The position numbers were made by a program, and so were the translations under genes. Below are positions 12,034-53,125 of a DNA stretch of 64,000 nucleotides, piece after piece. Under the pieces are notes generated by a model. It was not told the DNA's origin and did not search any database. It worked only from the letters and a program-made list of their open reading frames with translations. Origin of the DNA: Sistotremastrum niveocremeum HHB9708 (Eukaryota; Basidiomycota; Agaricomycetes; Sistotremastrales; Sistotremastraceae); the NCBI GenBank assembly GCA_001630475.1, contig KV419433.1, positions 111,026-175,025 on the forward strand, read 5' to 3'. Each line of letters starts with the position of its first letter. Position 1 is the first letter of the stretch.

Positions 12034-13527
12034 TCAACGGCTTGCGTTTACGTTCGTTATCAAGGATGTCGCAGGTCTGAGCTTGCCTTTGAACTTTGTC
12101 TTCGTATGATTGTCCCTAGTTTCCTTTGAGCGGCTCTCTCGGAACTGGTACCAAAGCCGTAGAATATCCTGACGGAATCTCTGAGCAAAAATCGAAGTCA
12201 GGACGTTCAGAAATACTGTACCTTCTGAGAGGCGAAAGTGACGAAGACGGATAAAGGTACTATAAAAGAGAATCTCGTTGAGACAGTATTTGACACTTCA
12301 TGTTACTCACGTATAGCTAAGAAACTGGTAGCGACCAACGTGCTACTCTTGACGGCGCCGGAATTCAGCAACAAGCTATTGTCGCACATCAGCAACCAGA
12401 ATTTTGGGACGAAAAAGCCATAATGGCTCACCCGATGATTTCCCAGATCCCGAAGATGAAGATGCGCGTCAACAAAGAAAGACCCACAATAGAAGGGATG
12501 CCAAAGCTTCGTGTTGCTTTTCGACGTTTCCATACCACGTAACAAATTCCGACTGCAGATGGGAATCTCGAGTTAGCACGAAGAAGTGTTCGAAGGTTGA
12601 CAAAGTTACCTTGACAAATGAGCATTCCAATCGCGAATATGCTCAGCTCAATACCCAATATCATCCCGCTGTGAAGAGTAATAAGCTCAGAGCAGCGTAT
12701 CGAGTAATAGCTCCCCACAACTTGACGTTCGCAATGGTGCAAAAGAAGGAATGACCGCCCCGATTGACTATACCGGGAAATCGAGTTCCGATCTGTGGAT
12801 TGCAGTTCAATTCTCAGTTGTTAGTAAAATCGATGAGACTAACCACAGCAGCCGGGATAGCGAACAGTAGGAAATTGAAGTAAGGCAGACTGAGCATCTA
12901 TTGGAGAAGAAGATTCGATTACTACGAGAAAGCTGAGGGGAACTGAATACTGACGATCCAGTTTCTGACTACGGGATGACGGGGGCTAGCGGGCCCCCGC
13001 ATCACAGTTTGCCACGTCTGCGAGAGCATAGTCGTATGATGCTTCCAAACCCAAGGTGTAAGTTGATCAGGGCACTAACCTCGAACAGTAAAATGAGTGC
13101 AGAGAGCACAAACCTGCATAGAAAATCAGTGGGTCATGGCGCTCGGATGATGCAGAATTAGATTGAATACGAACGCGGGATCAAATCCATGTTTCAAAAT
13201 AGCCTGAACGTAACATTGCGTATACGGAGGGCTAGGATTCATGTACTGGCCCGTATAGAACCTATCATGAACTCAGCGTCAGATGAAAGCGAGAAGGGCT
13301 AATCCTCACAGAATTAGATATACAGGAGTCCCAAGAAACGACAGAAGAATAAAATTATATAACGCAGGCATCCGAGGCGAAAGAGACTTCGCCAATAATA
13401 AAGTCAACAGAAGTATTGCAAGTCCAGCTTGGCCGACGATGAGCAGGGAGAACCATGCAAGTTGAGTGCCACGCGGATGTTGTCCCAACCACAGTCCGTC
13501 CGCATCCGGCGGATCAATCACCTCCAT
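12034..13527 (-). CDS. Seven-helix GPCR-like membrane protein, copy A
   Basis: Eleven exons join to 315 aa without a stop: 13527-13310, 13261-13175, 13113-13080, 13017-12955, 12897-12844, 12792-12719, 12668-12610, 12552-12432, 12375-12311, 12259-12222, 12168-12034. Exon 1 carries HPRGTQLAWFSLLIVGQAG (helix 1) and LYNFILLSFLGTPVYLIL (helix 2). Exon 2 has QAILKHGFDPA, exon 6 has HSFFCTI, exon 8 has KRRKATRSFG, exon 10 has LPLSVFVTFASQK. Hydropathy gives seven spans with a short N terminus and a 45-aa hydrophilic tail that starts DILRLWYQ. The family is widespread but unnamed in mushroom-forming fungi, as far as I recall. Receptor function is inferred from topology only. Exon 9 is three codons shorter than in the other copies. 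Head-to-tail with copy B. Confidence 0.88.
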
Positions 13528-14294
13528 TTCTCCGTTCTGGACGCCGGCGTCTCAGGCCTAAAGTCGGTTAAAGAATCAGAAACTACGCGACTTTGAGCTA
13601 TCGAGTTGAGTGTAGCAGTGGTATAGTAGGAGCCAGTCCTCCATAGACACGGACGGTGAGCCGGATTTATATGCTTCGTAGACAAGTAAATTTTATGATC
13701 GGCTACGAACGAGTAGCATAGGGAGAAACGCTAACGTGATTGCTATAGTTTCTGACAGCGACGGCGTGGAAGCTTCGGTCATCAAGACCGTGCCTGATTT
13801 GCGTTTCTTTTGATGAAAGACAAAACCATCACTGGGTTCACTGCCGAACTGGCCCAGTGGAAGTGTTGATACGCCGAGATGACTCCCACTGGTTGAATAC
13901 ATGTTTAATGAATCCAAAATTCGAGCAAGAGGACGTTCTACATTCTGAGAAGAGCGTGACGAGATAGTGCCAGTCCAATCCAAGCAGCGACCAGTCGGGC
14001 GCATGAGAGTCCTGCACAGGCTTCATCGGAGCTTCTCGTTGATGCCGCCAAGCGGCATTGTTGCGACGGCAAAGCACGGAAGCGAACGCCGTCGTCGGAG
14101 AGCGGAAGACTTTTTCAGGACTTTTTCCCTCTCTTTCATCGACGTTCAAGCTCTTCTTAACAACCTGGTTCGATGTGTGATTTACAATCTGTAATCTGCG
14201 AGCCGTATTTCAAAAGTCATGAAATATCTCATCAGAATCTTGCTATCGTCTCCCTCCCTGTTCATTTTTGTCTTGATTGCTTGGCTCATAAATT
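13528..14294. other. Spacer between seven-helix copies A and B
   Basis: No gene seen. The part from 14155 on is the 3' flank of copy B and is repeated at 3590-3870. Confidence 0.6.
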
Positions 14295-15760: not shown

Positions 15761-16542
15761 TCTTGACGCCTCTAATGGAGAATTCTGGACACAGATTGGA
15801 TCCAACGTCGCACTTCAGGTGGAGTAGAAGGTAGGAACGAAGTACAGGCGGCACATGAACCGACATGCTTGAAAGATTTTGAATCGAAGGACGAGAATCT
15901 TCCCCATGAACTCAGTTCAAAATCGATTTCGAGATAAGCTCCGAGTCTTGCAGGATCTCTTGCTAAGTAGGAGTGTCCCTGGTGCCTTAGGATCCCCTCA
16001 TGCAATCTCAAGATCTATCTGCATCCGTATCGAAGTTGATCGCGCTTCGGTAATATCGCGATATCGACGACACAGAGTTGGGCATCAGCTGACGATTTAT
16101 CGAAGCGTCTGGATAGCTCAACAGAGCATGCTGTTGTTATCGGTGCCGAGCAGGTATAAGTATAAGTATAGACCGAGTTGCAATAGCAATCGCCAGGCAC
16201 AAAGTCTGCTGAAATCTGGAAGCCTTCGGATGATCAGATGACTCAGACTGCTGAGGAGCTATCGCATCAGACTTTTGCTCGTCGATCATATCATATCAGC
16301 TTCCAATTGCACGGAATGGACATTGATGGACCATGGTGATCTACGTTGCTCAAAGTCAAAGCCAGAGTTTCAAATCCACATCATTCCCTTGATTGAGGTT
16401 GAGCAAGACTTCAAATGGTGCGAAGGAAACGAGCATCATCGGAAATCGGAACCAAATTTCAACGAAAATTAAAAATTAAATTGAGGATAACCAGGACGAA
16501 TTCGAGGTGGAAGAACAGGTTTCGATCACGCGACACTTTCTT
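15761..16542. other. Intergenic between seven-helix copy B and the DUF6535 3' exon
   Basis: No supported gene. Contains a short (tataag)n run near 16155-16170. Overlapping plus and minus frames at 15880-16240 shadow each other. Confidence 0.45.
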
Positions 16543-17126: not shown

Positions 17127-17272
17127 CCCTCCCCTTCTGAACGGAGCATACCGTTCCACTCAAACATAGGAGAGAGTAGGCGGGAAGATGAGAAGGGAAA
17201 GAAAAAAAAATCCGCAATCAAATGAGCGTAACAAAGTTGGTATTTTAATTTTAACTTGGGTTTTCTAATTTT

Positions 17273-20327: not shown

Positions 20328-20422
20328 GACGGATGTGCTTACGTAATCACATCCGCGCGCGTTGTACATCGGGCTGAGTACGAAACTAGGCTACTTGTAT
20401 ATTCTACTGCTACTCTCTAACT

Positions 20423-20682
20423 TGTTGGACATATGAGCCAGTACGAGCTGTAGTCGGAGTTACGGGGTTAACGGAGATACGGCGAGTTCTGGAGATCGGA
20501 CCAAGTTAGTGGCATCGCTGTATAGCGGTTGCCGTATTTAGTAGCATCCGATGTAGTATATAAGCGCAGCCCGGATGTCGGAAATAGGCAGAGGTTAATC
20601 TGCCTATTGACCGGACATCCAGGTTAGTACATAAATATTGCAGAGGTTAATCTGCCTATTGACCGGACATCCAGTTTCATCA
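20423..20682 (+). repeat. Copia 5' LTR
   Basis: 260 bp, TG...CA ends, differing from the 3' LTR at one position by my reading (ggaccaag versus ggaccgag). It contains a tandem pair of a block beginning aggcagaggttaatctgcc and a TATA-like tagtatataagcg upstream of it. Confidence 0.93.
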
Positions 20683-20699
20683 GGTTATGAGCCCTGCGC
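20683..20699 (+). promoter_or_regulatory. Primer-binding site for a half initiator tRNA-Met
   Basis: GGTTATGAGCCCTGCGC directly follows the 5' LTR. Its complement is GCGCAGGGCTCATAACC, the anticodon stem-loop of fungal initiator tRNA-Met as I recall the yeast sequence, not its 3' end. Priming from a cleaved internal half of initiator tRNA is established for Drosophila copia and yeast Ty5. Confidence 0.8.
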
Positions 20700-21676
20700 T
20701 CACGCTGTGATATCCGTTTTAAATACACTACCTCTTGTCGTTTGCAAAACCGTCTTTATTCAAACCTATCTCGAAAATTTTCACAAACCCCTAAAAACCA
20801 CTCCTATCCTCACTTCGAATTTCGAAAGCTTCAAAACCGTCGTACTCTATCAATCACGCCGAACGTCATGCCAACAGACACCGAAGAGAAGACGACTCGA
20901 TTCACAGGGTCCAAGATCCCAAATCTGATCCGTGCGAAAGGCAACGAGCCGTCCAATTTCCACACATGGAAAATTCAAATGCAAGCTGTTTTCATGGAGC
21001 AAGAACTATGGGATGTCGTCTATGGAAAAGAGAAAGCGAACATTCCAACCCTCGTCAAAACCAAAACCATTAAAGCCGATGTCGACGGAGTGTTGAGAGA
21101 TGTGAAGCAAATAGGAAACGAAGTCGAATACGAGAAGGCGCTGGTGGATAATGCCGGGTGGACGAAGAAGGACCGAAAGGCCTGGAGAATATTGACAGAG
21201 TGCCTTGATGCCGACAGTATCACTCTGGTCGAGCACAGTGGAACCACTGCTATTGCCTGGGCCCGCCTTTACAACTACTTTTCCACCGCCAGCTCTCGCG
21301 AAAGTGGCACTATCTTCAAGCAGATCAGCACGTACGAGTGCGAAGAGGACATGGACGTCGACGAATGGCTTACGGACATGCGCAAACTCTACTCCCGCTA
21401 CAAATCCCATGGCGGGAACAACATGCCGGATTCCCTCTTCGCCGAAAACTTGCTCCTGCTGCTACCAAACTCGTGGACACATTGGTGCGGTACCTATGAA
21501 CAAACTACAAAAGGGAAGACCCTCAATTCGGAAATCGTAATCTCTGATATACGAACTGAATGGGCCCGTCTCTGTCGGCGCCGACCAAGTGCCCTCGCAT
21601 CCATCTTCACGGCTCGTGCCGCAGCCGAACGAAAAAGGAAATCGGATGCCTCTTTCGCCAATTCCGCCCGTCCCAC

Positions 21677-22137
21677 TAGTGTTTGCAAGTCAGGTCACTT
21701 AACCGCCAAATAACCGCAACTTAGCCGTAACTTAACCATTTGTGACCTAACCATGGTTAATGGTCATGGCTCAGAGCTGGTGGTCAAGTCACAGTCATAG
21801 ACCTCCCCGGAATCCTTAACCGCTTGCCTTGACCAACATGGGTAGATCCTTGTCTACAGCCTTCCCCAGGCCTTCTGGTGTGTTCTGCTTGTCATATACA
21901 TCATATATGAGGACCAATAACCTAGATTAAGTAGTAAAAAGTGGAGATTTATGACTTTTTTGAGGTCATAACCGCATTAACCGGTCAAAGTCAGGTCATG
22001 GTCACCCAATTTTGGCTTAACCGTGACCGTTGGCGGTTATAGGTTACAGCAAAACCCATTAACCATAACCGTGGTTTGGTTACGGTTAGGGCCTCCGAGG
22101 GGCCCATAACCTAACTTAACCTGACTTTCAAACACTA
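21677..22137. mobile_element. hAT-type MITE in Copia gag (8-bp target duplication)
   Basis: 461 bp. Left end TAGTGTTTGCAAGTCAGGT and right end its near-reverse complement. Flanked by CGTCCCAC at 21669-21676 and 22138-22145. Internal repeats of ttaacc/ggttaa. No ORF. Confidence 0.92.
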
Positions 22138-25100
22138 CGTCCCACCAACAAACCTCGTGTTCTACCGAGGTGCAGCAACTGTGGGAAGCTCGGACACATT
22201 GCTGAGTCTTGTTGGGGAGTCGGTGGAGGAGCAGAAGGTCAGTATCCGTCAGGATACAAGGGGAGGAGAGACTTGCCGCGTGCCGGACCGGTTGTCCGAT
22301 ACTCCGGAGTGGCTGAAGACCGCGCAACTGGCAGCAACTTGACGCAATCATCTTCAGTCAGCATGGCAAGATTTAAAATGTGCCAAGTTCGTGCTCCTCA
22401 GGCTACAGACGCAGATGATAGGGCCCAGGTGACGATACCGATTTTCTCCGCACAATTACCTAAAGGGAACGGCTTCTACCACGACAGCGGCGCTAACCGA
22501 CATGTCGTCCACGACCGTGCTCTGTTCAGCGAGTACCATGCTACTGCCCCCATTCCCGTCTCTGCTTTCGGCGAAAAGCTTGTCGTCGAGGCCATTGGAA
22601 AAGGGACTGTCATCGGGACTCTCCACCACGCGGGCCTGACCACCACCATCTCTCTTCAAAATGTCTTACACATCCCGGAGGCCCGACAAAACCTAGTCTC
22701 CGAAGTCCAGTTCAACCAATTCGACGTTTTCACCGAGTTCATAAAAGGAGGGCTGATGTTGAGGACGGATGGTGAAGTGATTGGCGATGGGGTATTGGAC
22801 AGGGAGCAGGGCATGTTTAGGATCCACTTCTCCCCTACCCCCCGTCTAAAATTGAGCGACCGCATCAGTCCACATGAATCACTCAGCGACCGCATCACTC
22901 CTGAGCAACCCATCGCGATGTCTTCGAGCTCCCTCCGTGAAGTCGACCACCATTTTTTCATCGCCTCGCAGGTCACTCCCGAACAGATGGCGTAAAAGAC
23001 CTGCTGCGATCGGTCAGGGGCATCACCGTCAAGCTCCCATCCTCTCCTCATCACGTCTGCGACGGTTGCGCGAGAGGAAAAATTCATCGTCTTCCTTTTC
23101 CTTCTTTCACCGATACCCGTTCCAATGCCATTCTCGGCCGAGTTCACTCTGATGTCGGTGGCCCTCTACCCACCGGGTACGGCAACGCAAGATTCTACGT
23201 TACCTTCATTGACGACTTCTCTCGGCATGTTCACGTCTATATCATGCACTCAAAAGATGAAACCATCGAAAAATTCAAAGAATTCAAAGCTTTCGCCGAA
23301 AATCTTCACAACACGAAAATTAAAATATTTCGAAGCGACAATGGCGGCAAGTATACCTCGCAATCCTTCCAGTCCCTTCTCTCCGATGCTGGCATCGCCC
23401 ACGAGCTCACTGTCCCCGACTCTCCACAACAGAACGGGGTGTGCGAGCGATACAACCGCACTCTTATGGATATGGCAAGGCCTATGCTCATAACACGGGC
23501 GGTCAGTGTTTATTTCTGGCCGTTTGCCGTCACCATGGCTTGCCACATCAAGAATCGTCTCCCTTCCTCCTCCCTCCCTCCTCATATCACTCCGCACGAA
23601 CGATGGACCGGTAACAAACCTGACCTCTCCTATTTCCAGGAATTCGGCGTCCAATGCTACGCGCGAGTCGTCTCTGACTCCTTGAAGAAATTGGATCCTC
23701 GAGGAGAGTTCGGGATTTTTCTGGGATATGCGAAGGGAGCAAAGGGATATCAGTTCTGGCATTCAGACAGTCGCACTGTGAAGATTCGGCGTGACCTTCT
23801 CTTCTCGAACGCACCACCTTCGCCTCGCCACCTCGCCGGTGATACCACCAACTACGAGCAATACATGCCGCTATTCAGTCAGGGGGAATATCCAAACGCG
23901 TTGTTGGATACCCCATGTACGCCGTCCGATCCTCAGGGGACCGAGACAAACTCCACCGAAGACTCCCTGGGAGATCTAAGGTATGCTTTCGTATCGCTTC
24001 CGAAGCGTTCGATTGCTAATTCTACTGTTCTCAGGACCGTTTTTGAATCGGAGGGTGAAGTGTCCGACACTACACGCCTGTCTGAGAACAGGTACGTTGT
24101 TGCCGCGGTGCCAGAGGTTGAAAGTCCTGAAAATATATTGTTTTATAGTGACTTGCGGCGGTCTGGCCGTCCACGTCGATTACCCGCACGCTTCAGAGTC
24201 CTCCAAGCCAACTGCTGGCTTGCCATCGACCTTGTTCATGGGGTCTATCTCTTCGACAGCACAGCCCCCGACGATGATGAAAAATATTGGTCCCATGCCT
24301 TTTCCCTCGCCACTCCCTACGATCCCGATGAGCCATCCACCGTACAAGAAGCCCTTAACGGCAAGCATTCTGCCGAATGGACTGCTGCTATGCACGAGGA
24401 GCTCGAGTCTCTTCGAGCTATGGATGTCTATGAGGAAGCTACCCTTCCCCCGGGCCGAAAATCTGTCAAGTCGAAGTGGGTGTTCAGAGTCAAGCGCAAC
24501 GAACACTTGCACATCGCACGATTCAAGGCCCGTCTTGTAGCTCGTGGCTTCACTCAGGTAGCGGGGCAAGACTATTTTGACACTTTCTCGCCAGTCGCTC
24601 GGCGCTCGCTGGGATTCCATTCGGTTGATTTTAGCGCTCGCGGCTATCTTCGACTGGGAATTGAAGCATCTTGATGTCAAGACCGCCTTCTTAAACGGAG
24701 ATCTATTCGAGGTGGTCTATCTTGAGCCTCCGCCAGGACATGGGGGGGGCGGTAGATTTGTCTGGCGTCTCAAGAAAGCCCTATACGGCTTGAAGCAGGC
24801 CGGGCGCCAATGGTACTTGAAGATACACGAGGCTTACACCAAATTGGGATTCGTTCGACTCGAATCTGATTGGTGCATATATATCAGACAATCCTCCGAC
24901 GGTGTCATCATTGTTGCCATGTCGGTTGACGACCTCCTTGTCGCTGCATCCTCGCTTGCCTTATATAGTTGGTTTGAAACCAAAATAGGCGAAATCTTCA
25001 CAATCTCGATCTTAGGAGACGCACACTGGATCTTGGGAGCTCGCATCACTCGAGATCGGGCGAAGAAACTCCTCACAATCGATCAGGAGACCTACGCAAC

Positions 25101-25679
25101 AGCTGTACTCGAGGGGTTCAAGATGCACAATGCCAATCCCGTCCAATCGCCTCTCGATCCGAAAGTTAAGCTCTCGGCTGCCACCTCCGACGTCGTTCCT
25201 GCTGAAGACAAAGAAATCGAATCCCTATACCGAAGCATTGTGGGACGACTTATGTACCTCGCAACCACATCTCGACCCGATCTCGCCAACTCGGTTCGGC
25301 TTCTCTCTCGATTCATGTCTCGCCCAACAAAGGACCATTATCTCGCAGCTAAGCGTGTACTTCGCTATCTCAATGGCAGTCGAGGTCTCTCCATCACGTA
25401 CGATGGCAATGCTGCCTCGCCCATGTTCAATGTCTATTCAGACGCGGACTGGGCACAAGAAAAGGGGAGACGCTCGGTCTCCGGCTATATTGTGGAGATG
25501 GGAGGGGCTGCAGTGTGCTGGAGTTCAAAGCAGCAGGCTGTTGTGGCACTCTCGTCGTGCGAGGCCGAGTACATGGCTACCACTCATGCCGCAAAGCAGA
25601 TTCTCTGGCTTAGGTCACTCATGAAGGAACTCGGCTTCAGTCAAAACAATCCGACCACACTCTTTTGCGTAGAGTTCCA

Positions 25680-26175
25680 AGGTCCAGTCCACGTGACTGG
25701 TCGTATTGGGCAACCGGACCGAAGTCGCGACTGGACTGCAGTTGCCGGTTGCCTCAGTTTCTGAAAATCAGGCAACCGGCAACCGCAGTCATGACCAGTC
25801 GTGACCACGGTCGCGACCGATGCTCAGGGAAGACCCTTAAGGGTCCCCAAACAGGGTGCTCAGAGGGCAATGTACTGGTATTTTCCTCATGTATGGTCAT
25901 GTATTCATGGTATATGATATATATACAGTATATATATCATCAATAGACACCAATAGACTATATATAAGAGGGTAAGACAATATATTAATCATTAAAATAT
26001 TACATTTCTAGGGCAGGCAACTGGTCGTGACTGGTCATTTGATGACTGGTTGCCGGACCGCAACTGCAGTTGCAGTTGCCAGTCATGGCAAATTTGGGAT
26101 TTGGCAACTGGTCGCAGTTGCCAGTCACGAGGAATTTTGGAAAAAGTCCAGTCGTGACTGGACTTTGGAACTCTA
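25680..26175. mobile_element. hAT-type MITE in Copia RNase H (8-bp target duplication)
   Basis: 496 bp. Ends TAGAGTTCCAAGGTCCAGTC and GACTGGACTTTGGAACTCTA, near-inverted. Flanked by CTTTTGCG at 25672-25679 and 26176-26183. Carries many copies of gtcgtgac/gtcacgac subterminal motifs. Same family as 17639-18079. Confidence 0.93.
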
Positions 26176-26201
26176 CTTTTGCGACAACCAAGGCACCGTT
26201 G

Positions 26202-26952
26202 TAAGGTTCGGCACGGTTGCCTATCCGCGGCTACGGATATCCGGCGAAATTTCCGGAGGCCCATCCGCCATCCGCGGCTGTGCAACGGCGGATAGCCGAG
26301 CATTATCCCGGATAGCCGAGGATCCCCGGATCATCCGCGGATATTAATATATTAATTATTTGTTTTAATCGATATTAATATATATATTATTTCCTCTATT
26401 TACATTTGTGTTCCCGCGATCCGATCGTGATCAAACTTGATCAAACACGATCAACGAACGACGCGCGGATTGTTTCGAACTCAGCTCGTCGTCCCCTGCC
26501 TCTCGCCAGCACCACCAACCAGCCTCAAGCAACGAATGGACCCCCTTCCTCATCGACAACATCGCTCAGCAACATCAAGACAGTGTCTACACACTTGCAG
26601 AAGACTATAGGAGGTGGAAATGGGTGGATAAGGGATGGATTGGCTGATGGATGGATGGATGTAGTGCTGGATGGAGGCTGCAGGCTGTGCTGTGGGCCGA
26701 AAAAATCGAATAAAATAATAAATATATCCGAAAATGTATATAAAAATGATTAAAATAATAATATATATAATAAAAAATAATATATAAAATAATAAATATA
26801 ATAAAATATCATCCGGATATCCTCGAAAATCCAGGACCTCCATCCGCCATCCGCGGCTCGCGCTGTCACGGATATCCTGTCACGCGGATATCCGGTCACA
26901 CGGATACATCCGCGACGGATAGCCGGATGCCGCGTATCCGTGCTGAACCTTA
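26202..26952. mobile_element. Third hAT-type element in Copia RNase H (8-bp target duplication)
   Basis: 751 bp with ends TAAGGTTCGGCACGG and CCGTGCTGAACCTTA. Flanked by CACCGTTG at 26194-26201 and 26953-26960. Subterminal gcggatatccg-type repeats at both ends and a very A/T-rich inner block (26695-26815). No transposase frame. It lies only 19 bp beyond the right end of the preceding MITE duplication. Confidence 0.92.
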
Positions 26953-27176
26953 CACCGTTGCGTGCACCCACAATCCTCAGAGCCACTCCGCACTCAAGCA
27001 CATCGACATACGCGTCAATTTCATCCGCCATTGTGTATCTGCCGGTCTAGTCGAAGTCGTACACATACCGGGTACTGAAATGATTGCCGATCTTCTCACG
27101 AAGTCCCTCGCGCCACCAATGCATCAGAGATGGCTCAACCTCCTGAAGATGTCAAAAATGGATTCACCTCCGTAAT

Positions 27177-27190
27177 GGCTCATGGGGGGG
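27177..27190 (+). promoter_or_regulatory. Copia polypurine tract
   Basis: ggctcatggggggg abuts the 3' LTR at 27191. The G run next to the LTR is the expected plus-strand primer site. Confidence 0.75.
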
Positions 27191-27450
27191 TGTTGGACAT
27201 ATGAGCCAGTACGAGCTGTAGTCGGAGTTACGGGGTTAACGGAGATACGGCGAGTTCTGGAGATCGGACCGAGTTAGTGGCATCGCTGTATAGCGGTTGC
27301 CGTATTTAGTAGCATCCGATGTAGTATATAAGCGCAGCCCGGATGTCGGAAATAGGCAGAGGTTAATCTGCCTATTGACCGGACATCCAGGTTAGTACAT
27401 AAATATTGCAGAGGTTAATCTGCCTATTGACCGGACATCCAGTTTCATCA
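27191..27450 (+). repeat. Copia 3' LTR
   Basis: 260 bp, same ends as the 5' LTR. The single difference I see suggests a recent insertion. Confidence 0.93.
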
Positions 27451-34733: not shown

Positions 34734-36265
34734 TCATGCGGCTTCAGTCCTATTTTCGTCAGTAGACGATAGATAGTCCTTATCTGATCCGACCAATGTT
34801 GTAGGCTCCGACTGATAGTGTTCGGGACAGGATTTATCTCGTGGAAGCGCGGCCATCGTACAGAACGAATGGTACCAGCATTTCAATATATCCTGATGAA
34901 AGTCGAGAATGATCAGTTTGAGTAGTCAAATTTCGCGAGCTTGCACTCATGACGCACCTTTTGAGAGGCAAAGATGAGGAAAACAGATAACGGCACTTTA
35001 TCTTCCAGATAAGTGATTTTGAAAACATTTCCGATGCGTCTTTGGACTGACCTATCGATAAGAAGCTGATGGCAGTACGTGTAGTTCCAACGACTTTAAC
35101 CATCGTCCCGGTGTTCAGCAGCAATCTTTGGGAAGACTGAGTCGGGGCTAATGGAGAAAAAATGTCACATACCCAAGAAGTTCCCACAGGTTGAATATCG
35201 AGATACGAAGTATCTGGGAAGTATCCAGCACGGATTTGATACCCAGTTTTCGTGAGGCTTTGCGTCGCTTCAATAAAACGATAAGGAGTGCCGCTGTAAT
35301 TCGTCATATGGCTTCAGACAACGTTACGTAGACTACCTATAAACTAAGATTACCTTGACAGATTATAGTTGCGGACGCTAGAATGATCATGTTCAGATTC
35401 ATAATTGCGGAACTACGAGGTGTTCAGTAAGCCTGCTTGAGCTGAAGCACGATTCCTTACAAGGTGTTGTCACTTATGATGCAGAAGAAAGCATATTTCA
35501 GCCGAATGACCTTCACAGGCGATACGAGTCCAGTCTGAATGAATGATGGATGTTATGAGACGAGAGCGAGGTGGGTAGATGTACTGTGGCTCACGATGAA
35601 AGCACACGCCGAGATGATCAAGTAGCTGAAGTAAGGAAGAGTTCGGAGCTGAACGAAGATGATCAAGCTGGATCATGACGGAAAAGCGGCGTACACACTA
35701 TAAGATAGCAACCTCGACTTGATTGCGAGTGCGGAGGATTGAGTGGGCCATGAATCGCAGATTTCAAGGTCTAGATGGAATGTCAATTGTACTCACTTCG
35801 ACGTGCTTACGAAGGACGTTATATTACGCACTTCATATACAAGTAGAAAGGACGAAAGAATAAATCTGGCGACAAAAAGTCATGACACCGATACCTACGA
35901 GCTGACAGTACTCACGCGGAGTCATTTCCATATTTGAGAGCAGCTTGCACCAGGCATTGCGAATAAGAGGGGTTCACACTCCTATATTCACCGCTATAGA
36001 ACCTAGATCACGCTGATGAGAGATTGTGCCTGAAAATCATCGAAGAATCCACATACAGAATGAGATATACGATTGTATCCAGCAATGCGAGGAACACAAG
36101 ATCATATAGCGCAGACAGTCGGGGAGCCAGGCATTTTGCGAAGAGGAAAGTGAGCGAAAGGAGGGCAAGACCTGCTTGACCGACGATTAAGGAAGAGAAC
36201 CAGATAATCTGTACGCTCCGCGGATGTGGGCCAAGGCTCAACCCATCGGCATCAGCGCTGTCCAT
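34734..36265 (-). CDS. Seven-helix GPCR-like membrane protein, copy C
   Basis: Eleven exons, 326 aa: 36265-36057, 36002-35916, 35865-35832, 35770-35699, 35648-35595, 35534-35461, 35412-35354, 35293-35173, 35125-35052, 34995-34958, 34892-34734. Signature pieces: HPRSVQIIWFSSLIVGQAG, QAALKYGNDSA, YAFFCII, KRRKASRKLG, IFNLWELLG, VPLSVFLIFASQK. Exon 4 is 72 nt, the longest loop in the family. The 52-residue tail starts DILKCWYHSFC and is acidic toward the end. The nearest relative is the pseudogene at 46610-47957, with copy G next. First gene of the five-gene array. Confidence 0.88.
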
Positions 36266-43012: not shown

Positions 43013-43520
43013 TCAAACAGTGGAAGCCACCAGTGTTATCGTCTCCACTTCGTTGATCGTTGTCTTATCCCTCGCCTTTGGTGCAACCGATTTGAAAGAC
43101 CGAGACCCACTTTTTTGCGCAGACCCCTTATCAAGCTCCTTTGATCGAATTCTCCGAAGCAATCTGATAGACCAAAATGTCAGGATATCCTATCGGATGT
43201 CCGTCAACGAGACTGCAATTGTTTGTATGAGATCACTCTTACCTTTCGAGCACCGAAGATGATGCAGACAGACAAGGGGACTAGCAAGTTGAGCGCCTGA
43301 CGTTAGCCCAAGCAGTGAACGGACAGTGGTGCTTACCGACTGCCAAGAACGTTGTAGCGAACGCTGTCCCCGCAACTGCATCCCCTACGACTCCAAGTGC
43401 GACTGCCGCATTTAGTACCAATCTGTTTGGCTGCGGTCATGTTGTGGAACGATTGCGTAGGTCGACGAGCAATAACATACGAAGCGAGCATCCAGAGATT
43501 ACGGCTCTTTGCAAAATTCA
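43013..43520 (-). pseudogene. 3' remnant of a seven-helix gene (exons 9-11)
   Basis: The last three exons are readable: exon 9 (ALGVVGDAVAGTAFATTFLA) near 43440-43350, exon 10 (VPLSVCIIFGAR) near 43290-43250, exon 11 (DILTFWSIRLLRRIRSK to TGA at 43013). The tail ends VETITLVASTV, matching copy H (VETVTLVGSTV). Exon 8 is decayed to fragments (NLWML near 43490) and nothing further upstream is recognisable. Confidence 0.8.
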
Positions 43521-44048
43521 CGGCGCGGCCCGTTTTGGCATCCAATTGTTGGCATCGAAATTTTCCGCGTCAAAATTTTCCGCTCGACATAGAATAGCTT
43601 GTAGCTCACTCAATCCTAGGTAGAATAGATTGATGCTTGTACCGTTGAAATCGTACGACCTCGTGCTACACGGTGATACCAAAATTTTGAGAAAAGAGCA
43701 AGGTCAAAATTTCACCTTTTGTTTCGGTACCGCACTCAGCGCTAACTCAGATAGCAAATACGACCAGGTTGAAGAATATCGACCCCGTGTCACTTGAGTA
43801 GAATCATAATAGGGTATACCCATCGATGAGCTCCTAAGCTGCTCATTGGATGAGCCTACCTCAATCGCGTGATTCTCAAAGCAACGACAAAGTTCCGTTC
43901 GCTGTATAGACTTTATTTACAGTATACCAAGTTGCACGTAATCGAATTCACTCATCAGATGCACAGTGTGAAGAGATTGGGCGTCTTTGGTATCCATGAT
44001 GCTCGTTTCAAATTCTGTCTAAGATGCTGTGACATTGCTGTCGCCACA
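43521..44048. other. Spacer upstream of the 3' remnant
   Basis: No gene. A block at 43915-44030 resembles 38570-38680, the 3' flank of copy D. Confidence 0.5.
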
Positions 44049-45627
44049 CTACCTAATTATTAGCACTGGGCCTAGATCTGTCAAGCTTGCCGTTGCCGGC
44101 TGGGCCGTCTTCTGGGACGTCTCCTGGGCGGTATCCGAGTCTTGGACCGTCTGGCCACTGATTTCCTGGACGCATGGATCACGCTTTGGCGAAGGCAACC
44201 AAACTCTCATGATATCCTGTTGCAGAGCTGTCAATGAAAAGTAAAAGACTAAAGAGAATGTTGATTTTCCTTTTGGGAACCGAAGATGACAAACACGGAC
44301 AGTGGGACTACGGTCACATATGATCAACAAGCACACGTGGGGTACAAATCGGAAGTGAACTGGTTTCGTACTTACCAAGCGCCAAGAAAAACGTTGCGAT
44401 CATTGTATTGCCCACAACATTTCCTATAGCTCCAGAGTTCAGCAGTAGCCTAACGCATTGTATCAATCCTGGTATCAGTCCAAGGGATACCTGGCATCCT
44501 ACAATGACTTACCCAACGAGCTCCCACAAATTGAAAACCGAAATCCGAATAATTTGAGACAGATCCAAAGAGTTAGGGACCCCTAATTTTTGGCACGCTC
44601 TTCGGCGTTTGTATACGACTATGATAAGAGCAACTTCGTCGTCGTCGAAATGCTTAGTTTGGGTGGGGACGTAATTGGACGACTCTGGCGTACCTTGGCA
44701 TACGAGCGTTGCTGCAGCAATCAGCATTATCTCCAATGTGAGTATATCACCGCTTAAGAGTATTATCCGCGCGTGATAATGACCTCCAGGAAAATGACAT
44801 ACAATCGCTTGTCATTGATTGTACAGAAGAAGGAATGTGTTCCGTGTACCACCTTTTCAGGGAATTGATGGCCTACCTATAAGAATGTGTTGGATTAAGT
44901 GAGGTTTGGTCTCAAGTGAGGGATGATCACACGCACCACAGCAGTAGTAATTGAGACAATGATCCAATTGCAATAAGGCAGAAAAATAAGCTGGATCGAC
45001 GTTACGTGTAAGCGAACCAAGCAGGCATCGAGAGGATCTCATATCACAAACCATCCAGTGCGGGCGTGAGGATGAGCTTGAGCTTGTTGGGCCACGCCTT
45101 GCATTCATAAATGCCTAGAGCATGAATGATGTCACGACACTTCAACTTTGCTGTTAGCTAGAGTAACGGACCCCGAGAACTAAAAAGAAAGACGATAAGA
45201 TTAACCTGTAAAAGATAATGTAAGGATCTACATGAAGAATTGTTGATGTGCCGGAGACATACGCGGGGTCGAATCCATGTTTCAGAGAGGCCTGCATCAG
45301 GCATGGCGTGTAAGGAGGGGTCATAGTCATAAATTGGCCGGTATAAAACCTAGAAAATGAGATTGATACTCAATATAACCATCATTATGCGGGAGTCTAG
45401 AATACCACATACAGTATCAGATAAATTGGAGTGCCGAGCAGTGACAAAAAAATAAAATTATATAGCACGTTCATACGTGGGGCCAGCGACCTCGCCAGGA
45501 AGAGGGTAAATACAAGAAAAGTAAGACCAGTTTGACCAACAATCAAGAGAGAAAACCAGGTCAGTTGTATAGCTCGAGGTTCTTGACCAACTTGGGACCC
45601 GTCTGGGCCGATTGGAACTGACGCCAT
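44049..45627 (-). CDS. Seven-helix GPCR-like membrane protein, copy E, with a lost splice donor
   Basis: Eleven exons would give 328 aa: 45627-45413, 45349-45263, 45205-45172, 45114-45052, 44990-44937, 44876-44803, 44752-44694, 44633-44513, 44449-44376, 44307-44270, 44216-44049. ATG 45627 was chosen over 45681 by family length. Signature pieces: EPRAIQLTWFSLLIVGQTG, QASLKHGFDPA, FPEKVVHGTHSFFCTIND, KRRRACQKLG, IFNLWELVG. Exon 10 is followed by GAAAAT where copy D has GTAGGA. Without splicing, translation would add six residues (ENQHSL) and stop, replacing the 55-residue tail. All seven helices remain. Most similar to copy D. Confidence 0.8.
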
Positions 45628-46609
45628 TCTCAAGCGAGTGAGGCTGACTAATCTATGACAGCTCGAGCTTAGGGAACTCAATGTATCAGCTTAGACAAGT
45701 CGCGGCAAGGATCCTTCTGGATCAGTGGACGGCTTGAGAGATTGCAACAGAAGAGGCGGGGTGAGAATGATGAGAGGACCCATTATTATAGCTCTGGCAA
45801 ACAGGTAGTCGGGGATTCCGCCGTTCGTCTTCCTATTCTGGATCTTTTGTTATGATGAAACGGCTGGTTGTCAACAAGGAAGTACATATCAGTGCATAGC
45901 GTTGGCTTACTGTTCAACCTTACAATATCTAGGTGATGGTGGTATATGAGACGGTACTCCGTATACCCTGTGGAAACGACCGTTAGTAGTAGTAGTAGGT
46001 AAGCCGCCAGGATCAGAGGATGCCGAAGCTGACAGGAAGCGGCGTTAAAGTGACTATATCCGCGTCATTGCCTGAGTCTCCAGACCTTAGACGACCCCAA
46101 CAGCTTCAACGCCAAATCAATCAACAAGCTGATCAGTACTTTGACGAGTTGAAGGACCTTCTGTCGAGAGGGTCGTCATCATATTGCTCCGAACCTATCT
46201 ACGAACATCAATCAGCCTTGCAATCAGCCTTATTTGTCGTCAAACGAGCAGTTTCCTTAGCACGCTCTCTCGGATTCCCCAGTCATTGTGGTCGCTCAAG
46301 ATGTGCAGTCATGTGACAGCCAGAGTATTTAGAACTGAGGACGTAGAAACCGTTGCTTGCTTTCCTCATCTACGGTTCGTCGATTATTGACTCGTCAATT
46401 TTCTTGCTTCAACCAGACTTCCAGGTTATCCCGACCGTGATAGACCGACATCTAACGACTGGAATTGTACACCTTGTTACCTCCACCCTCCAGAGCATCC
46501 AACAAGTACTCTGGCTAGTCTCGCTTCATATTCTGATGCCGCATCTTTCGAACCGGGACCTTGTCATCGAACTAACTCTGACTTGAAATTTCTTTCACGG
46601 CATACGAAT
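45628..46609. other. Spacer with repeat shared with 47970-48660
   Basis: 46010-46600 matches 47970-48650 in several blocks (for example gtgatagaccga versus gtgataggccga after ccgacc/tccgacc). Plus frames here (46020-46316) are not kept in the second copy. No gene. Confidence 0.55.
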
Positions 46610-47957
46610 TTACGCCACCTGAATTGTTGGATCCTCACTCCAAGATACACCACTCTTTTCTAAGGTATCTGAGTTCCAAGGACGAGACCGTGAAGCCTCT
46701 GCAGTTTTTGTTTCTGAGGACCGGAGCGATGTAGGGCCATTGCGGAACAGTCGGTACCAAATCATCAATATATCCTGATCGAAAGTTCGCCCACATGAGC
46801 AACGGTACAGAGACGATTTGAACAGAGACGCACTTTTTGAGAGGCAAAAATGAGGAAAACAGATAACGGCACTGTATCTTCCAAATAAGTGATTTTGAAG
46901 ACATTTCTGATGCTTCTTTGAACTGACCTATTGATCAGAAGCTGATTGCGGTCTGTGTAGTTCCAACGACCTTGACCATCGTCCCGGTATTTAGCAGCAA
47001 TCTTTTGGAACATTGAATAAGGGCTTGCGGAGAGAAAATATCAAATACCCAAGAAGTTGCCATAGGTTGAATATCGAGATACGAAGAATCTGGGAAGTAT
47101 CCAGCAAGGACCTGATACCCAGTTTTCGTGAGGCTTTGCGTCGCTTGAACGAAACGATAAGGAGTGCCGCTGTAATTCGTCATATGACTTCAGACAACGT
47201 TATATATAGTACTAATGCGTCAGGAGTACCTTGACATATTATAGTCGCCGACGTTAGAAGGATCATGTTCAGATTCATGATTACGGAACTACGAGGTGGT
47301 CAGTGAGGCTGCTTGAGCTGAACCACGATTTCTTTTCAAGTGTTATCACTTATGATGCAGAAGAGGGCATAATCCAGCCGAATGACCTTCTCAGGCGATA
47401 CAAGTCCAAGCTGAATGGATGATAAATGTTATGAGACGAGAGCGAGGTAGGTAAATATACTGTAGCTCACAATGAAAGCACACACCGAGATGATCAAATA
47501 GCTGAAATAAGGAAGAGTTCGGACCTGAACGAAGATGATCAAGCTGGATTCATGTCGGAAAAGCGGCGTACACACTATAAGATAGCAAACTCGAATTGAT
47601 CGGGAGTGCGGAGAATTGAGTGGGCCTTGAATAGCAGATTTCAAGGTCTAGACAGAGCGTCAATTGTACTCACTTCGACGTGCTTACGAACGACGTTATA
47701 TTACTAACCTCATAGACAAGTAGAAAGGACGAAAGGATAAATCTGGCGACCAAAAGTCATGATACCGATACCGACGAAGTGAAATTTGAAGACTGACGCA
47801 GAGCCGTTTCCATATTTGAGAGCGGCTTGCACCAGGCATTGCGAATAAGAGGGATTCACCCTCATATATTCACCGCTATAGAACCTAGAAGACACGATTG
47901 ATATCTCATATCAGTACCGTTCGCCGCGGAGGTCTAAATATCACGTACAGTATTAGC
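46610..47957 (-). pseudogene. Seven-helix gene, 5'-truncated and stop-containing (copy F)
   Basis: Exons 2 to 11 are present in order (exon 2 from 47884, exon 11 from 46775), close to copy C and copy G. Exon 1, which encodes helices 1 and 2, is missing: only its last bases and the GTACGTGAT donor remain near 47950, and unrelated spacer repeat begins at about 47958. Exon 9 has TGA where copy C has TTA (AGC TTC TGA). Exon 11 has one extra base near 46740 compared with copy G, which shifts the tail and ends it at 46635. Three independent lesions make it a clear pseudogene. Confidence 0.88.
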
Positions 47958-48676
47958 CTTGGCTTGAGAGTCAAGATGCCGAAGCCGGCAAGAGTCGGCG
48001 TTACCCGACTATATCCGTGTCATCCGAGTCGCATGCCATGATGAGTCTGCACAGCGTTCGACACTTGCCGTTGGACGACCTCGAGAACTTCAAGCCAATT
48101 AAATCAGCTCCCTAATCAGTAATACGACGAGCTGAAGTGCCTTCTGTCGAGAGAATCATCATCCGCTCGCTCCCAACCTGTCCACGAACATCAATCAGTC
48201 TTCCATGCGGCCATGCCATCGAACGTGAAGGTTCTGAGCACGCTTTACTCGGGGTAATGTGTTGTGTGGCTGAAGTGATCAATCAAGGTCTCAGGAGTGT
48301 GACAGTAGGAGTACCGAGATGAGAGACTGGTTACCTATATTTCTCATTCACGGTTCGTTAAATATTGACTTGTCAATTTTCTTGTTCTCTACAGATTCGT
48401 CCTACCCAGACCATTCCGACCGTGATAGGCCGATCTTCAACGAATGGTTCCCCATATTTCATGCACGACACTTTACCGACATCCCAGGATTCCAGCCTTC
48501 ATGGTTGCAACCGTGAGAGTACCAAAATGATGTCAGGGCAACGTTGCCAAGAGCCTTTTCAGATGTTATGTTACTGACTACCACCCTTAATCGATCAAGT
48601 GACAGTCATCTATCATGATCTGTGACCCTGTCATCGAAACAAGTCCGAATTAACATTTCATCCCCGACATACGAAT
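47958..48676. other. Spacer repeat beyond the truncation point of copy F
   Basis: Matches 46010-46600. No gene is seen. It directly abuts the broken 5' end of copy F. Confidence 0.6.
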
Positions 48677-50190
48677 TTACACAACCCAAATTGTTGTGTC
48701 TTCGCTCCAAGACACACCACTCTTATCCAAGCTATCTGGATTACAAGGATGAGACACCGAAGCCTCTGCAGTCTCTTTCTCGGGGTGTCGGAGCGGTGTA
48801 GGGGTATTGCAGCATATCCGGCACCAGATCATCAATATATCCTGATAATGAAATTTTGAGCAGAGGAGTAACGCAGGGACGAAATGGACAGAGACGCACC
48901 TTCTGGGAAGCAAAAATTAGGAAGACGGATAAGGGGACTGCGTTGTCAATGAGTTACTTGCAAGAACCACACGGGCCGCAAGTCTTCTTTGTGCTCACCG
49001 ACGGATAAGAAGCTCGTCGCGATCAGCGTGTTCCCTACAACATTCACCAGCGCACCCCAATTCAACAGCAACCTACGCGCTGGTTGTTTGGCAACGAGGA
49101 GGAGAGAATGCAATCAACATACCCTATAATTTCCCACAGGTTGAAGATCGATACACGAAGAATTTGAGAATGATCGATTAAGGATCCGATGCCCAATATT
49201 CTGGTAGCTTTTCCACGCCTGTACACAACAGCCAGAAGCAGGACTGGCTCAGAACATGACACGTCAGTGTCCTCAATTGCGGACATGGATGCAGAAATGA
49301 GACCTTGAAATATTATAGTTGCGAGTGCAAGCATTATCATATCAATATATAGGATGGTGGAGCTACGCAGTGATAAGTAGCTTGACATTTGATGGAAGTA
49401 AAGGACTTACAAAAGATCATCATTGACGACGCAGGAGAAGGTATACTTAAGCCGAACGATTTTCTCAGGAGAGGCAAGTCCGACCTTCATAAATAATCAC
49501 ATAATGAAGAGGAGCAGGATGGTAATCGACACCAACGAGGAGTGCGCCGATCAAAAAGATTGCGTAGCTGACATATGGAAGGGACAACAGCTGCCCGAGG
49601 TCAAGAAATTATGTAGTCGAAGAATGAATTTCACGAACGAGGCACTGTCGATTAGGAGAGCGCGGTGGATCTCGGGAGCCAGAAAGTGCATTCCTCCAAG
49701 TCTATCAGTCATATATGATTAGTATTGATGTGAGCCGCCCCAATATCGAAAATCAACGCACCTCATAGACAAGCACGAAAGACGAGAGGATAAATCTATG
49801 CACTCAAGTAAGATCGGAAAACAATGATACATCAAAATACGGCTCACGCGGAGTCATTCCCATGCTTCAGGACAGCCTGCGCTAAACAGTGTGCATACGG
49901 TGGATCGGTACTCATGTATTCTCCTGTGTATAGTCTGACCGAGTTATCGCTTAGCTGCACGACATCGTTGGAACATTGACCTACAGGAGAAGATATCCGG
50001 GAGTCCCGAGAAGAGCCAAAAAGATGAAGTTGTAGAGAACAGGCAATCGTGGGACAAGGGATTTCGACAGCAATAAAGTCATCAACAAGAGGGCAAGCCC
50101 TGCTTGACCGATGAGCAAAAAGGTGAACCACGTAATCTGTACAGCCCGAGGATGCTGTCCCAGTTCTAGGCCGCCTGTGCCATTCATCAT
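48677..50190 (-). CDS. Seven-helix GPCR-like membrane protein, copy G
   Basis: Eleven exons, 324 aa: 50190-49985, 49934-49848, 49795-49762, 49701-49639, 49590-49537, 49484-49411, 49362-49304, 49243-49123, 49072-48999, 48937-48900, 48841-48677. Signature pieces: HPRAVQITWFTFLLIGQAG, QAVLKHGNDSA, SPEKIVRLKYTFSC (family FFC reads FSC), RRGKATRILG, IFNLWEIIG, VPLSVFLIFASQK. The tail (54 aa) starts DILMIWCRICC. ATG 50187 is an alternative start one codon in. Function unknown. Confidence 0.88.
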
Positions 50191-51578
50191 GTCTTCCTGT
50201 TTCTTCGTCGAACGGGCGACTGTTGAACTCGAGGGTACTCAGTTCAGATCCAGCCAGAAGCTACCAGAGCCTAGGAGTGAGAGTCCAATTCGAAGATGAA
50301 GGAGGAGCCTGAGCTCGAGACTCTCTGAGCATGTCTCGCTACAACTCTGCTGATCTGTTCGTGCCGAGTGATTGTCAATTGACTACCTGAGTGTAGCCGT
50401 ACTTCGAAGGTACCTGTGACTCTTTGATGCGGTATGAGAATGTCGTCCGAACTCAATCTATAACAGCACAATCGAGTGGATTATTTGGCTCACCTTGCTA
50501 AGTCTTGACCAGCCAAGTACACCATGCGCAGCATCCGGAAACTACTACGCAGGGTTTCCCTAATGTTTAATTTGAGGTTTGGTTAGAAAGGTTTAGGAAC
50601 CTTGATTGAGACTCAGAAGCAGATAGCTCGTTCCGCTCGTATGGTGAGATGATGCATCGGTGAGTCGATGCAGGATGCAGATCAAAACATGACTTTGATC
50701 AGAGCCTGGATTTACGACCAGTAGGATACAGGTGCGGAAGTCTCCGTTTAGGTCTTGTTTTGGTTGAAAGTTCGGGTTCACTAAGCAGAGTGTTCCTCAA
50801 CCATCTGGCCGCAGTCGAACTCGTCGAGATAACTTGAAGGCAAGCACAGCGACCCAGCGTGCGTTCTGTTGCCGAACTCGGCAGGAGTTCGGGTTACGTA
50901 ACCTCACCCCGCGAGGCTGTGCAAGTGCGAATTGAGAGAGCTACATCAATGCATCAATGCTGGTACCTGCAAGGCTACCTGAGTCAACTAAGGAGTCAAC
51001 AACTTCATCTTCAATTCGATCAAGAAGCCGATGAGGACCGTACGATTCAGGAAACGTATCTAGACTCGCTGACGATTTTCCTTGCAATTTTCCCTGGTCT
51101 CAGTGCGCATCACCTGGCTCGAAACAGCTGGCCATGGTCCACTCGTCGGATATCTGGAATGTTATTTTCGTTCACACAGGAGATCTCGGAGCTCTGAATA
51201 GTTGAGGCACGCTCATTCGAGCGAATGTTCATCAGGTCCCCGTTCCCTGCTTCCATCCCTCGCAAACATCAAACAGCAGTCTCCGCCATCAAGATCATCG
51301 CCGAGATGATATTTAGGCATTCGTTGCACGTGATAGAAATGCGCTATCCATCGCGAGGACTTAATCGTTCAAGTGGAATCAATCAAAGCGACGTCTGCAG
51401 GAGCCTGGTAAGTTACTCAGTTACTGATAGCCATTTTTTGGATTGGCCGACCGCCCTCTTTCATTGTCAGCACCTCCTCGTTGAATGAAGTTCGAGTCGG
51501 TATGTCTTCCACAATGCTGATCTCTGTGATCTTCTCCCATACGCACGACTGCATTGAAGTACTGACTCAAACCAAGCC
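50191..51578. other. Spacer between seven-helix copies G and H
   Basis: No gene supported. Short frames on both strands overlap and none carries family features. Confidence 0.5.
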
Positions 51579-53125
51579 TCAAACTGTTGAGCCCACTAAC
51601 GTCACCGTTTCCACTCCACTATCGCTGATTCTCTTGTCGACATCGTCCTGTATAGCGGATTTCGAGAGACCACGATTGGTTACCAGACCAGTTTTTTCTC
51701 GAAGCTTTTTTGGTCCTCTGAAGCGACATCTGCTACCCCAGTACCCCAGGATATCCTACGAAAATGGTCAACCCTCGGATACCGATTGCAAGCGGAGAAA
51801 TACCCTTTTGGCCCCGAAAATGATACAAACTGTCAAAGGAACTGTTGAAGCAGACACAGTCGCTTGAGAAGTGCGATATAAATAGTCCTTTATCCTTACC
51901 CGTTGCCAAGAACGACGTCCCGATCAACGAGCCACCTACTGCATCTCCTGTTATTTTCGAGCTCAGCACTAAACTGTGAAGTTGCCGGTTATATCTCAGA
52001 ATATTTGGAGATGAATATGCGGAAGTCAATATTACCCAATCAATTCCCAGAGATTGAATATTGAGATCCGAACGATTTGTGATAAATCCAAGGAAGACGT
52101 GACACCCAAACTTCGCGAAGCTTCACGGCGTTTGCGCACGGTGATCAGAAGACCGACTTGATACATATCCAAAAACATCGTCGTTTAGTGCTCACTTCCT
52201 GAGTATCAAGACGAACCTTGACAGACAAGGGTTGCGGCGGCCATCACGCTGACCTCAAGAGTCAATAAGTTACCACTATATAATGTGTGAGTCTCAATCA
52301 ACGACACACTGTCAGGCTTACAACAGATTATCCTGGATAGTACAGAAAAACGAATGAGGTCCTCGAACGACTTTCTCTCGAAATCGAAGTCCGAGCTGCC
52401 GACCTCACGTTCAGATCCATCCATACAGGTTCAAAAGTTGTCATCACGTACCACAGCTGCGGGAATGGCAAATAAAAGCGCGTTAAAGTAGGGTAAAGCA
52501 AGCAGCTAAACAGAGCTAATCAATGGCTGGATATAGACGATTTCTCGATACCCTGGATTTACGCACTGTGACTTGTCGAATGATAGGACGCGAACTTTTC
52601 TTGGGACCTTGTAGAGTATTCAACCAGGTCTACAGATTTTTTTCAGGGGATACTTCATAGCACACAGAAGAAAATACTCACTTCGGAAACTAACAGTAAA
52701 GAGGATACGATAAATCTGAGCAACTCGTTGGGATGAACGCGAAATCCGGTGCGAAGCGGCACAGGGGACTTACGCCGGATCCAGTCCGTGCTTCAAAACT
52801 GCTTGAAGAAAACATTGAATGTATGGTGGATCCGTGTTCATGTATTGTCCTGTGTAAAAGCTATAACACGACACGGATGTCAGTCAAGAAGAGGACCCTT
52901 TGACTCGACCTCGTACAGTATGACATAGACGATGCTTTCGAGGAAGGATAAGAAGACAACGTTGTATAACGACGGTATCCGAGGCTGCGCAGATTTTGAC
53001 AGATAATAAGTGAGCAGAAGAAGGGCAAGACCAGCTTGTGCGACGATCAAGAGAGAAAACCAGACGATTTGAATGGCTCGCGGACGGGATCCCAACGCGA
53101 AACCGTCTACAACGAGGGGCATCAC
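51579..53125 (-). CDS. Seven-helix GPCR-like membrane protein, copy H
   Basis: Eleven exons, 329 aa: 53125-52917, 52860-52774, 52715-52682, 52629-52567, 52505-52452, 52395-52322, 52275-52217, 52156-52036, 51973-51900, 51841-51804, 51755-51579. Signature pieces: RPRAIQIVWFSLLIVAQAG, QAVLKHGLDPA, FREKVVRGPHSFFCTI, KRREASRSLG, IFNLWELIG, VPLTVCIIFGAKR. The 58-aa tail is basic at first (CRFRGPKKLREK) and ends ETVTLVGSTV, shared with the remnant at 43013-43520. Last member of the array at its 5' side in this window. Confidence 0.88.

What the first reader, a model, noticed from the sequence alone, without database searches (positions are those of the whole stretch)
12034..53125. Expanded family of unnamed seven-helix GPCR-like genes: seven complete frames and three remnants
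Seen: complete eleven-exon frames at 12034, 14295, 34734, 38687, 44049, 48677 and 51579, plus broken ones at 46610 and 43013 and a tail at 3590. All are on the minus strand, with seven hydrophobic spans, motifs WFSLLI-GQAG, QA-LKHG, FPEKV-RG-HSFFC, KRRKA, IFNLWEL and VPLSVF-IFASQK, and a variable tail beginning DIL/DIM. Known: similar unnamed proteins occur in many mushroom genomes, from memory. Inferred: a receptor or sensor array evolving by tandem birth and death, analogous to chemoreceptor clusters. It is the best candidate here for an undescribed system.
Basis: partly seen in the sequence, partly recalled or inferred. Interest (0 to 1): 0.8.

Follow-up and report, generated by a model that had tools for sequence, protein, structure and literature searches.

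The report
Tandem array of orphan mushroom GPCRs
A wood-inhabiting crust fungus carries a row of old, diverged gene copies for unnamed membrane proteins that are predicted to fold like G-protein-coupled receptors, probably one block of a larger, unstudied set of chemical sensors.

Summary
The window lies on contig C40 of a 34.7-Mb genome matching Sistotremastrum niveocremeum. Six have all ten introns in the same phases; copy 5 (44049-45627) has lost the conserved donor of intron 10 and stays open only through another donor. Remnants at 43016 and 46547 are real; the "tail at 3590" is not supported.

The window-type branch has at least 30 loci in the genome; 15 models of a more divergent branch and one bridging gene were also found. 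Copies are mostly old and constrained; TM4-TM5 are the most variable helices.

Best reading: an orphan GPCR-fold receptor array, probably chemosensory. Ligand, coupling and expression are untested.

The parts
12034..13527 (-). intact copy 1, 315 aa, 11 exons; 95% identical to S. suecicum P0002
14295..15760 (-). intact copy 2, 303 aa, 11 exons
34734..36265 (-). intact copy 3, 328 aa, 11 exons; identical to P0004
38687..40289 (-). intact copy 4, 332 aa, 11 exons; identical to P0001; modelled by AlphaFold2
43016..43998 (-). remnant: last exons only, tail resembling copy 7 and S. suecicum P0006; outer exons of the model uncertain
44049..45627 (-). copy 5, open frame of 328 aa; conserved donor of intron 10 lost, frame open only through another donor; nearest relative copy 4 (70% identity)
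46547..48278 (-). pseudogene nearest to copy 3: exon 1 not recognisable, three in-frame stops in the model; outer exons of the model uncertain
48677..50190 (-). intact copy 6, 324 aa, 11 exons
51579..53122 (-). intact copy 7, 328 aa, 11 exons

Best explanation
The array encodes orphan G-protein-coupled-receptor-type membrane proteins of an unnamed family that is expanded in Sistotremastrum. Shown: six intact 11-exon paralogues and a seventh open frame, a seven-helix GPCR fold with helix 8 in the model of one copy, basic inner loops (N-terminus out), an invariant cysteine at the top of TM3 and another in ECL2, and purifying selection. Inferred: each copy sits in the plasma membrane, binds a different small external chemical through a pocket lined in part by the variable helices TM4 and TM5, and signals through one of the fungus's roughly 13 G-alpha loci. 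Repeated duplication, divergence and loss would give a set of receptors for sensing wood-derived or neighbour-derived chemicals.
Against: No transcript, ligand or G-protein contact was seen. The class A motifs are absent from their places: DRY-like 0 of 31, CWxP-like 1 of 31 and in TM4, NPxxY 1 of 31 and in the tail. The outer halves of the helices are not more variable than the inner halves (p 0.55 over 31 sequences; p 0.77 over the window clade). The cytoplasmic loops ICL2 and ICL3 are variable, which is not what one shared G-protein partner would most simply predict. TM4 is often a poorly conserved GPCR helix (recalled), so its variability alone does not show a ligand pocket. Only one copy was modelled with fair confidence.
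Confidence: 0.6

Rival explanations
1. GPCR-fold receptors for self-made signals: hormone-like, pheromone-like or self/non-self cues used in mycelial recognition or fruiting, not sensors of outside chemicals.
For: The genome has STE3 pheromone receptor genes elsewhere, on C13 and C35, so pheromone sensing exists. A conserved seven-helix mushroom protein, SNB1, controls fruiting (PMC10949477, passages). Two window copies group with S. suecicum proteins, so part of the array is shared between species.
Against: No STE3 match reaches cut-off; the best is P0009, E 0.034, 13.8 bits v 29.2. No CaaX precursor-like ORF in the window: 0 seen, 0.8 expected by chance, so the test has little power. Many diverged copies (44-70% identity) fit external cues more naturally; this is opinion.
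Confidence: 0.2
2. A seven-helix membrane protein that is not a receptor: transporter, scramblase, or partner of another membrane protein.
For: Weak sub-threshold Pfam matches to transporters: P0002 to MtN3_slv E 0.0019, 18.6 bits v 23.7; P0001 to Nucleos_tra2_C E 0.018. No canonical GPCR activation motifs.
Confidence: 0.12
3. A decaying block of duplicates with little present function.
For: Two of nine copies in the window are broken and copy 5 has lost a conserved splice donor; a copia element with near-identical LTRs lies within the array; another family copy is split between contig ends, apparently by a transposon.
Against: Six copies keep complete frames and all ten introns although synonymous sites are mostly saturated. 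pN well below pS in 21 of 21 pairs of open copies means long-term constraint.
Confidence: 0.05

Closest known systems
DUF6534 cluster of Agaricomycotina, proposed as a novel GPCR class (PMC12842992; abstract, methods, results parts 1-2 of 3 and discussion read)
   Same: Basidiomycete seven-helix proteins outside the known classes, present as many sequences; GPCR function inferred by computation
   Different: DUF6534 matched none of 22 proteins scanned (19 at E <= 10, 3 at E <= 1); DUF6534 genes lie elsewhere in this genome
SNB1 / DUF6533 family (PMC10949477; passages read)
   Same: Mushroom seven-helix plasma-membrane protein predicted N-out, GPCR considered but not classifiable
   Different: No DUF6533 match here; snb1 is mostly 1-3 and at most 4-5 copies per genome, without major expansions
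Pth11-like GPCRs (class XIV) of Pezizomycotina (PMC12842992 sections; PMC13308352 passages)
   Same: Large lineage-specific fungal receptor expansion thought to sense the environment
   Different: Exclusive to Pezizomycotina according to PMC12842992; no Pth11-type Pfam match here
STE3 pheromone receptors (class 2)
   Same: Seven helices, abundant in Agaricomycetes; one distant member (P0009) has a weak sub-threshold match
   Different: Below cut-off; all 25 STE3 matches of this genome are on C13 and C35
Animal olfactory receptor clusters
   Same: Works like: tandem paralogues, pseudogenes, GPCR fold; most variable helices TM4-TM5 (the olfactory side recalled)
   Different: No sequence kinship seen; no class A motifs; no evidence of odorant binding

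Membership tests
GPCR superfamily (by fold) | seven-helix bundle of GPCR type | tested here: met
GPCR superfamily (by fold) | N-terminus outside, C-terminus inside | tested here: met
   by the positive-inside rule only: inner K+R > outer in 31 of 31 sequences
GPCR superfamily (by fold) | cysteine at top of TM3 and cysteine in ECL2 (the usual disulfide) | tested here: met
   C87 and C167 are C in 31 of 31; the bond itself was not seen
GPCR superfamily (by fold) | ligand-dependent G-protein coupling | not testable with these tools
   G-alpha genes exist, about 13 loci; no complex could be modelled
Class A (rhodopsin-like) GPCR | DRY, CWxP and NPxxY motifs (listed in PMC12573245, passages read) | tested here: not met
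   DRY-like in 0 of 31, CWxP-like in 1 of 31 (in TM4), NPxxY in 1 of 31 (in the tail)
STE3 pheromone receptor | Pfam PF02076 at or above its cut-off | tested here: not met
   0 of 22 proteins; best 13.8 bits v 29.2
STE3 pheromone receptor | pheromone precursor gene nearby | tested here: inconclusive
   no CaaX ORF of 30-80 aa in the window, 0.8 expected by chance; spliced or longer precursors would be missed
DUF6534 or DUF6533 membrane family | match to the Pfam domain | tested here: not met
   no match at E <= 10 in the 19 proteins, nor at E <= 1 in the 3; the filters drop most weak matches
Pth11-like (class XIV) | Pth11-type or CFEM Pfam domain; Pezizomycotina | tested here: not met
   no Pfam match (same calls); host matches a basidiomycete
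Chemoreceptor cluster (works like) | tandem paralogues with pseudogenes | tested here: met
Chemoreceptor cluster (works like) | variation concentrated in the ligand pocket | tested here: inconclusive
   TM4+TM5 most variable but outer half no more than inner half

The most novel reading that the evidence does not exclude
Mushroom-forming fungi have their own large chemosensory GPCR family, a basidiomycete counterpart of Pth11 receptors and of animal olfactory clusters. It arose independently, is kept in tandem arrays, and takes its ligand specificity from TM4-TM5. The window is the largest Sistotremastrum array that I found.
Probability: 0.35. Interest if true: 0.75.

Novelty: new variant of a known kind. 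Interest (0 to 1): 0.5.

Why it matters
A 2025 survey of 1357 fungal species (PMC12842992, sections read) finds most fungal GPCRs in Ascomycota, with Agaricomycetes rich mainly in STE3-like ones, although mushrooms must sense wood, soil chemistry and neighbours. An expanded GPCR-fold family with no Pfam model could escape surveys that rely on the known classes or domains. If its members are receptors, it supplies candidate sensors for wood decay and mycelial behaviour. It is also a natural series of paralogues, 44-70% identical to one another, for matching sequence to ligand.

Tried and rejected
Tail at 3590: no support.

My first hand-spliced model (355 aa) had two misplaced introns; it was the query. 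The corrected model equals P0001.

The profile search of the second homologue round added only one fragment, P0010. Searches scored only the 7,998 and 7,995 candidates sharing most words, so absence from other fungi is weakly tested.

STE3, DUF6534, DUF6533, Pth11 and cAMP-receptor kinship: no Pfam support. Ste2 and other class D structures are not among the 50 rows shown; this does not exclude them.

Ligand-pocket idea tested as outer v inner helix halves: no difference. The TM4-TM5 contrast was chosen after seeing the window clade and then repeated on 19 other members; the third set of five is a subset of those 19.

Pheromone-precursor idea: none found. Telomere idea for contig ends: no TTAGGG arrays in L012, L017, L020.

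The second structure model (P0012, 4 sequences) is low confidence, pLDDT 59.2. Its 50 listed Foldseek rows are again all GPCRs, viral ones included, but only one row has E <= 0.001.

Rows dropped before counts: the stop-bearing 46547 copy, the 43016 remnant and the C34_97 and C82_45065 halves were left out of the 31-row alignment and of the tree. The 31 rows are 27 models of the window-type branch, the C13 model and three JGI proteins. For the tree I used 7 of the 15 models of the divergent branch, from 6 of 13 fetched regions, picked by hand-named region, score and length. Some models outside the window carry surplus exons (C82_38907 has 22) and are rough; 3 of the 15 divergent models carry stops or frameshifts.

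In checking the draft I found that copy 5 lacks the conserved donor of intron 10; I had counted it as sharing all ten introns. I also moved the C13 gene out of the window-type branch, as the tree shows (30 loci, not 31).
Full report
WHERE IT IS. The window is bases 111026-175025 of contig C40 of a 34.7-Mb, 111-contig genome. C40 is 325,095 bases long. The best database hits, on a contig of the same length, are named Sistotremastrum niveocremeum HHB9708; others come from S. suecicum. The species is inferred from these matches. That this is a saprotrophic crust fungus on wood is recalled.

THE OBSERVATION. I wrote a splice-aware protein-to-DNA aligner and ran it over both strands of the window with five reference proteins. 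Family copies scored 163.5 or more; other matches scored up to 102 in the window, and up to 116 in other regions. All seven claimed frames were found on the minus strand. In six copies ten introns of 46-65 (one of 73) bases fall at corresponding places with phases 2,2,0,0,0,2,1,2,1,0; the raw model of copy 6 has one surplus terminal intron, dropped. Copy 5 shares nine; the conserved donor of its tenth intron is lost, and the model keeps the frame by another donor in phase 1. Whether copy 5 makes a normal protein is open. The 46547-48278 copy has three stops in its model and no recognisable first exon. The 43016-43998 copy keeps only its end. The tail at 3590 is not supported.

PUBLIC GENE MODELS. 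Copies 3 and 4 are identical to database proteins P0004 and P0001. Copy 1 is represented by a differently spliced model (P0003), copy 7 by a fragment (P0010), and copy 5 by a model that runs on into the 43016 remnant (P0007). I saw no hit for copies 2 and 6, which does not prove that they are unannotated. Apart from copies 3 and 4 this rests on comparing the sequences by eye.

FAMILY SIZE. Searches of the whole genome and spliced models of fetched regions give 32 models. Two of these look like the halves of one copy, and one (C13) groups in the tree with JGI proteins rather than with the window type. That leaves 30 window-type loci: nine in the window and 21 elsewhere (two more on C40; the rest on C34, C70, C28, C82, C8 and C60). 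These are lower bounds. A JGI relative (P0012) led to a more divergent branch on C22, C43, C6, C33 and C7 (15 matches), for which I made 15 models; several are rough.

RELATIVES. The first protein search gave nine hits, all Sistotremastrum. The C13 gene, used as a bridge, found its own database model, three JGI proteins and one short Suillus paluster protein. Profile-profile comparison of seven window-type proteins (A2) with the C13 protein and the three JGI proteins (A5) gives 99.9% probability, E 1.8e-32 over 266 columns. So the family extends beyond Sistotremastrum, but I could not count it in other mushrooms.

NO NAMED FAMILY. 22 proteins were scanned against Pfam: 1 (the hand model of copy 4), 9, 5, 3 and 4. 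None reached a curated cut-off. Sub-threshold matches with E below 0.05 are P0011 to DUF3262 (5.6e-4), P0002 to MtN3_slv (0.0019), P0001 to Nucleos_tra2_C (0.018), P0014 to Polysacc_synt (0.018), P0012 to PsbX (0.031) and P0009 to STE3 (0.034). They disagree with one another. PDB sequence searches gave nothing for the single protein and one match at E 1.5 for the profile.

CONSERVED AND VARIABLE PARTS. In 31 aligned sequences C87 (top of TM3), Q90, C167 (ECL2), R223 (inner TM6) and F267 (TM7) never vary. Inner loops are more basic than outer ones in 31 of 31, mean 7.6 v 3.0. The class A motifs are missing from their places. TM4 and TM5 are the most variable helices: mean entropy 1.41 v 0.76 for TM1,2,6,7 in the eight-member window clade (p 6.6e-7), and 2.36 v 1.71 in 19 other members (p 3.3e-7). 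Against a simple pocket model, outer and inner halves of the helices do not differ (p 0.55; p 0.77), and ICL2, ECL3 and the tail are the most variable segments. PMC12573245 (passages) reports that positions in TM3-TM6 set ligand recognition in one odorant receptor. That is a parallel, not a test.

HISTORY. A maximum-likelihood tree of 41 proteins places the seven open window copies, one more C40 copy and two S. suecicum proteins in one supported clade (99/98). Copy 1 pairs with S. suecicum P0002 and copy 7 with P0006, so part of the array is probably older than the split of these species. In 25 of 28 window pairs dS is above 2 or not computable. The exceptions are copy 3 v the 46547 pseudogene (dS 0.60, dN/dS 0.40), copies 4 and 5 (0.69, 0.28) and the pseudogene v copy 6 (1.45, 0.25). 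Most duplications are therefore old and the open copies are constrained.

HOW IT MOST LIKELY WORKS. Steps shown: open genes, GPCR fold in the model of one copy, topology by charge, conserved cysteine pair, purifying selection. Steps inferred: plasma-membrane location, ligand binding, coupling to one of about 13 G-alpha loci (grouped by hand from 33 matches; 12 of the 13 have a match over cut-off), and an environmental rather than self-made ligand. I put the receptor reading at about 0.8 and the environmental chemosensor reading at 0.6.

WHAT IS KNOWN. A 2025 survey (PMC12842992; abstract, methods, results parts 1-2 of 3 and discussion) sorts fungal GPCRs into 17 classes and proposes DUF6534 proteins as a new one. 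It also reports 1969 clusters of seven-helix proteins not identified as GPCRs, so this family may be among them; supplements were not read. SNB1/DUF6533 (PMC10949477, passages) is another unclassified mushroom seven-helix protein. In a 2026 review (PMC13308352, passages) 'Agaricomycet', 'mushroom' and 'DUF6534' do not occur. None of the papers listed appeared, from titles and abstract starts, to describe this family. That library is open-access only and the lists were capped at 8-20.

VERDICT. A real array, with one copy less certain than claimed and one claimed tail unsupported. It is a new variant of a known kind, with function still open.

Noticed in passing
window 20423-27450 (+): Ty1/copia LTR element inside the array region, with gag, integrase and reverse transcriptase domains and 260-bp repeats 99.6% identical, so a recent insertion; further repeat pieces at 16.5-20.4 kb.
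   Followed up: partly
window 28668-30167 and 31966-33609 (-): Two frames with DUF6535 in tandem, another family of unknown function.
   Followed up: no
L020:4041-4070 (C82 right end) and L012:66-95 (C34 left end): A perfect 30-bp inverted repeat lies where one receptor copy appears split between two contig ends; this suggests a DNA transposon inserted in the copy and that C82 and C34 are neighbours, making a second array.
   Followed up: partly
C22, C43, C6, C33, C7 of the genome (L030-L042): A more divergent expanded branch of the same seven-helix proteins, 15 models; no Pfam match over cut-off in the 3 of 15 scanned.
   Followed up: partly
C40:10597, C40:19963, C82:32079, C34:67026: DUF6534 matches (the C34 one below cut-off) on the same contigs as the receptor arrays.
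   Followed up: no
window 44148-44307 (-): Copy 5 lacks the conserved donor of intron 10, possibly an early stage of decay.
   Followed up: partly
window 59682-60497 (-): BCS1 N-terminal domain, E 9.5e-25.
   Followed up: no
window 3405-3476 (-): tRNA-Asp near the place of the claimed but unsupported tail.
   Followed up: no
C13:527520-626695 and C35:8330-76369: Several STE3 pheromone-receptor genes, perhaps including the mating-type receptor locus.
   Followed up: no
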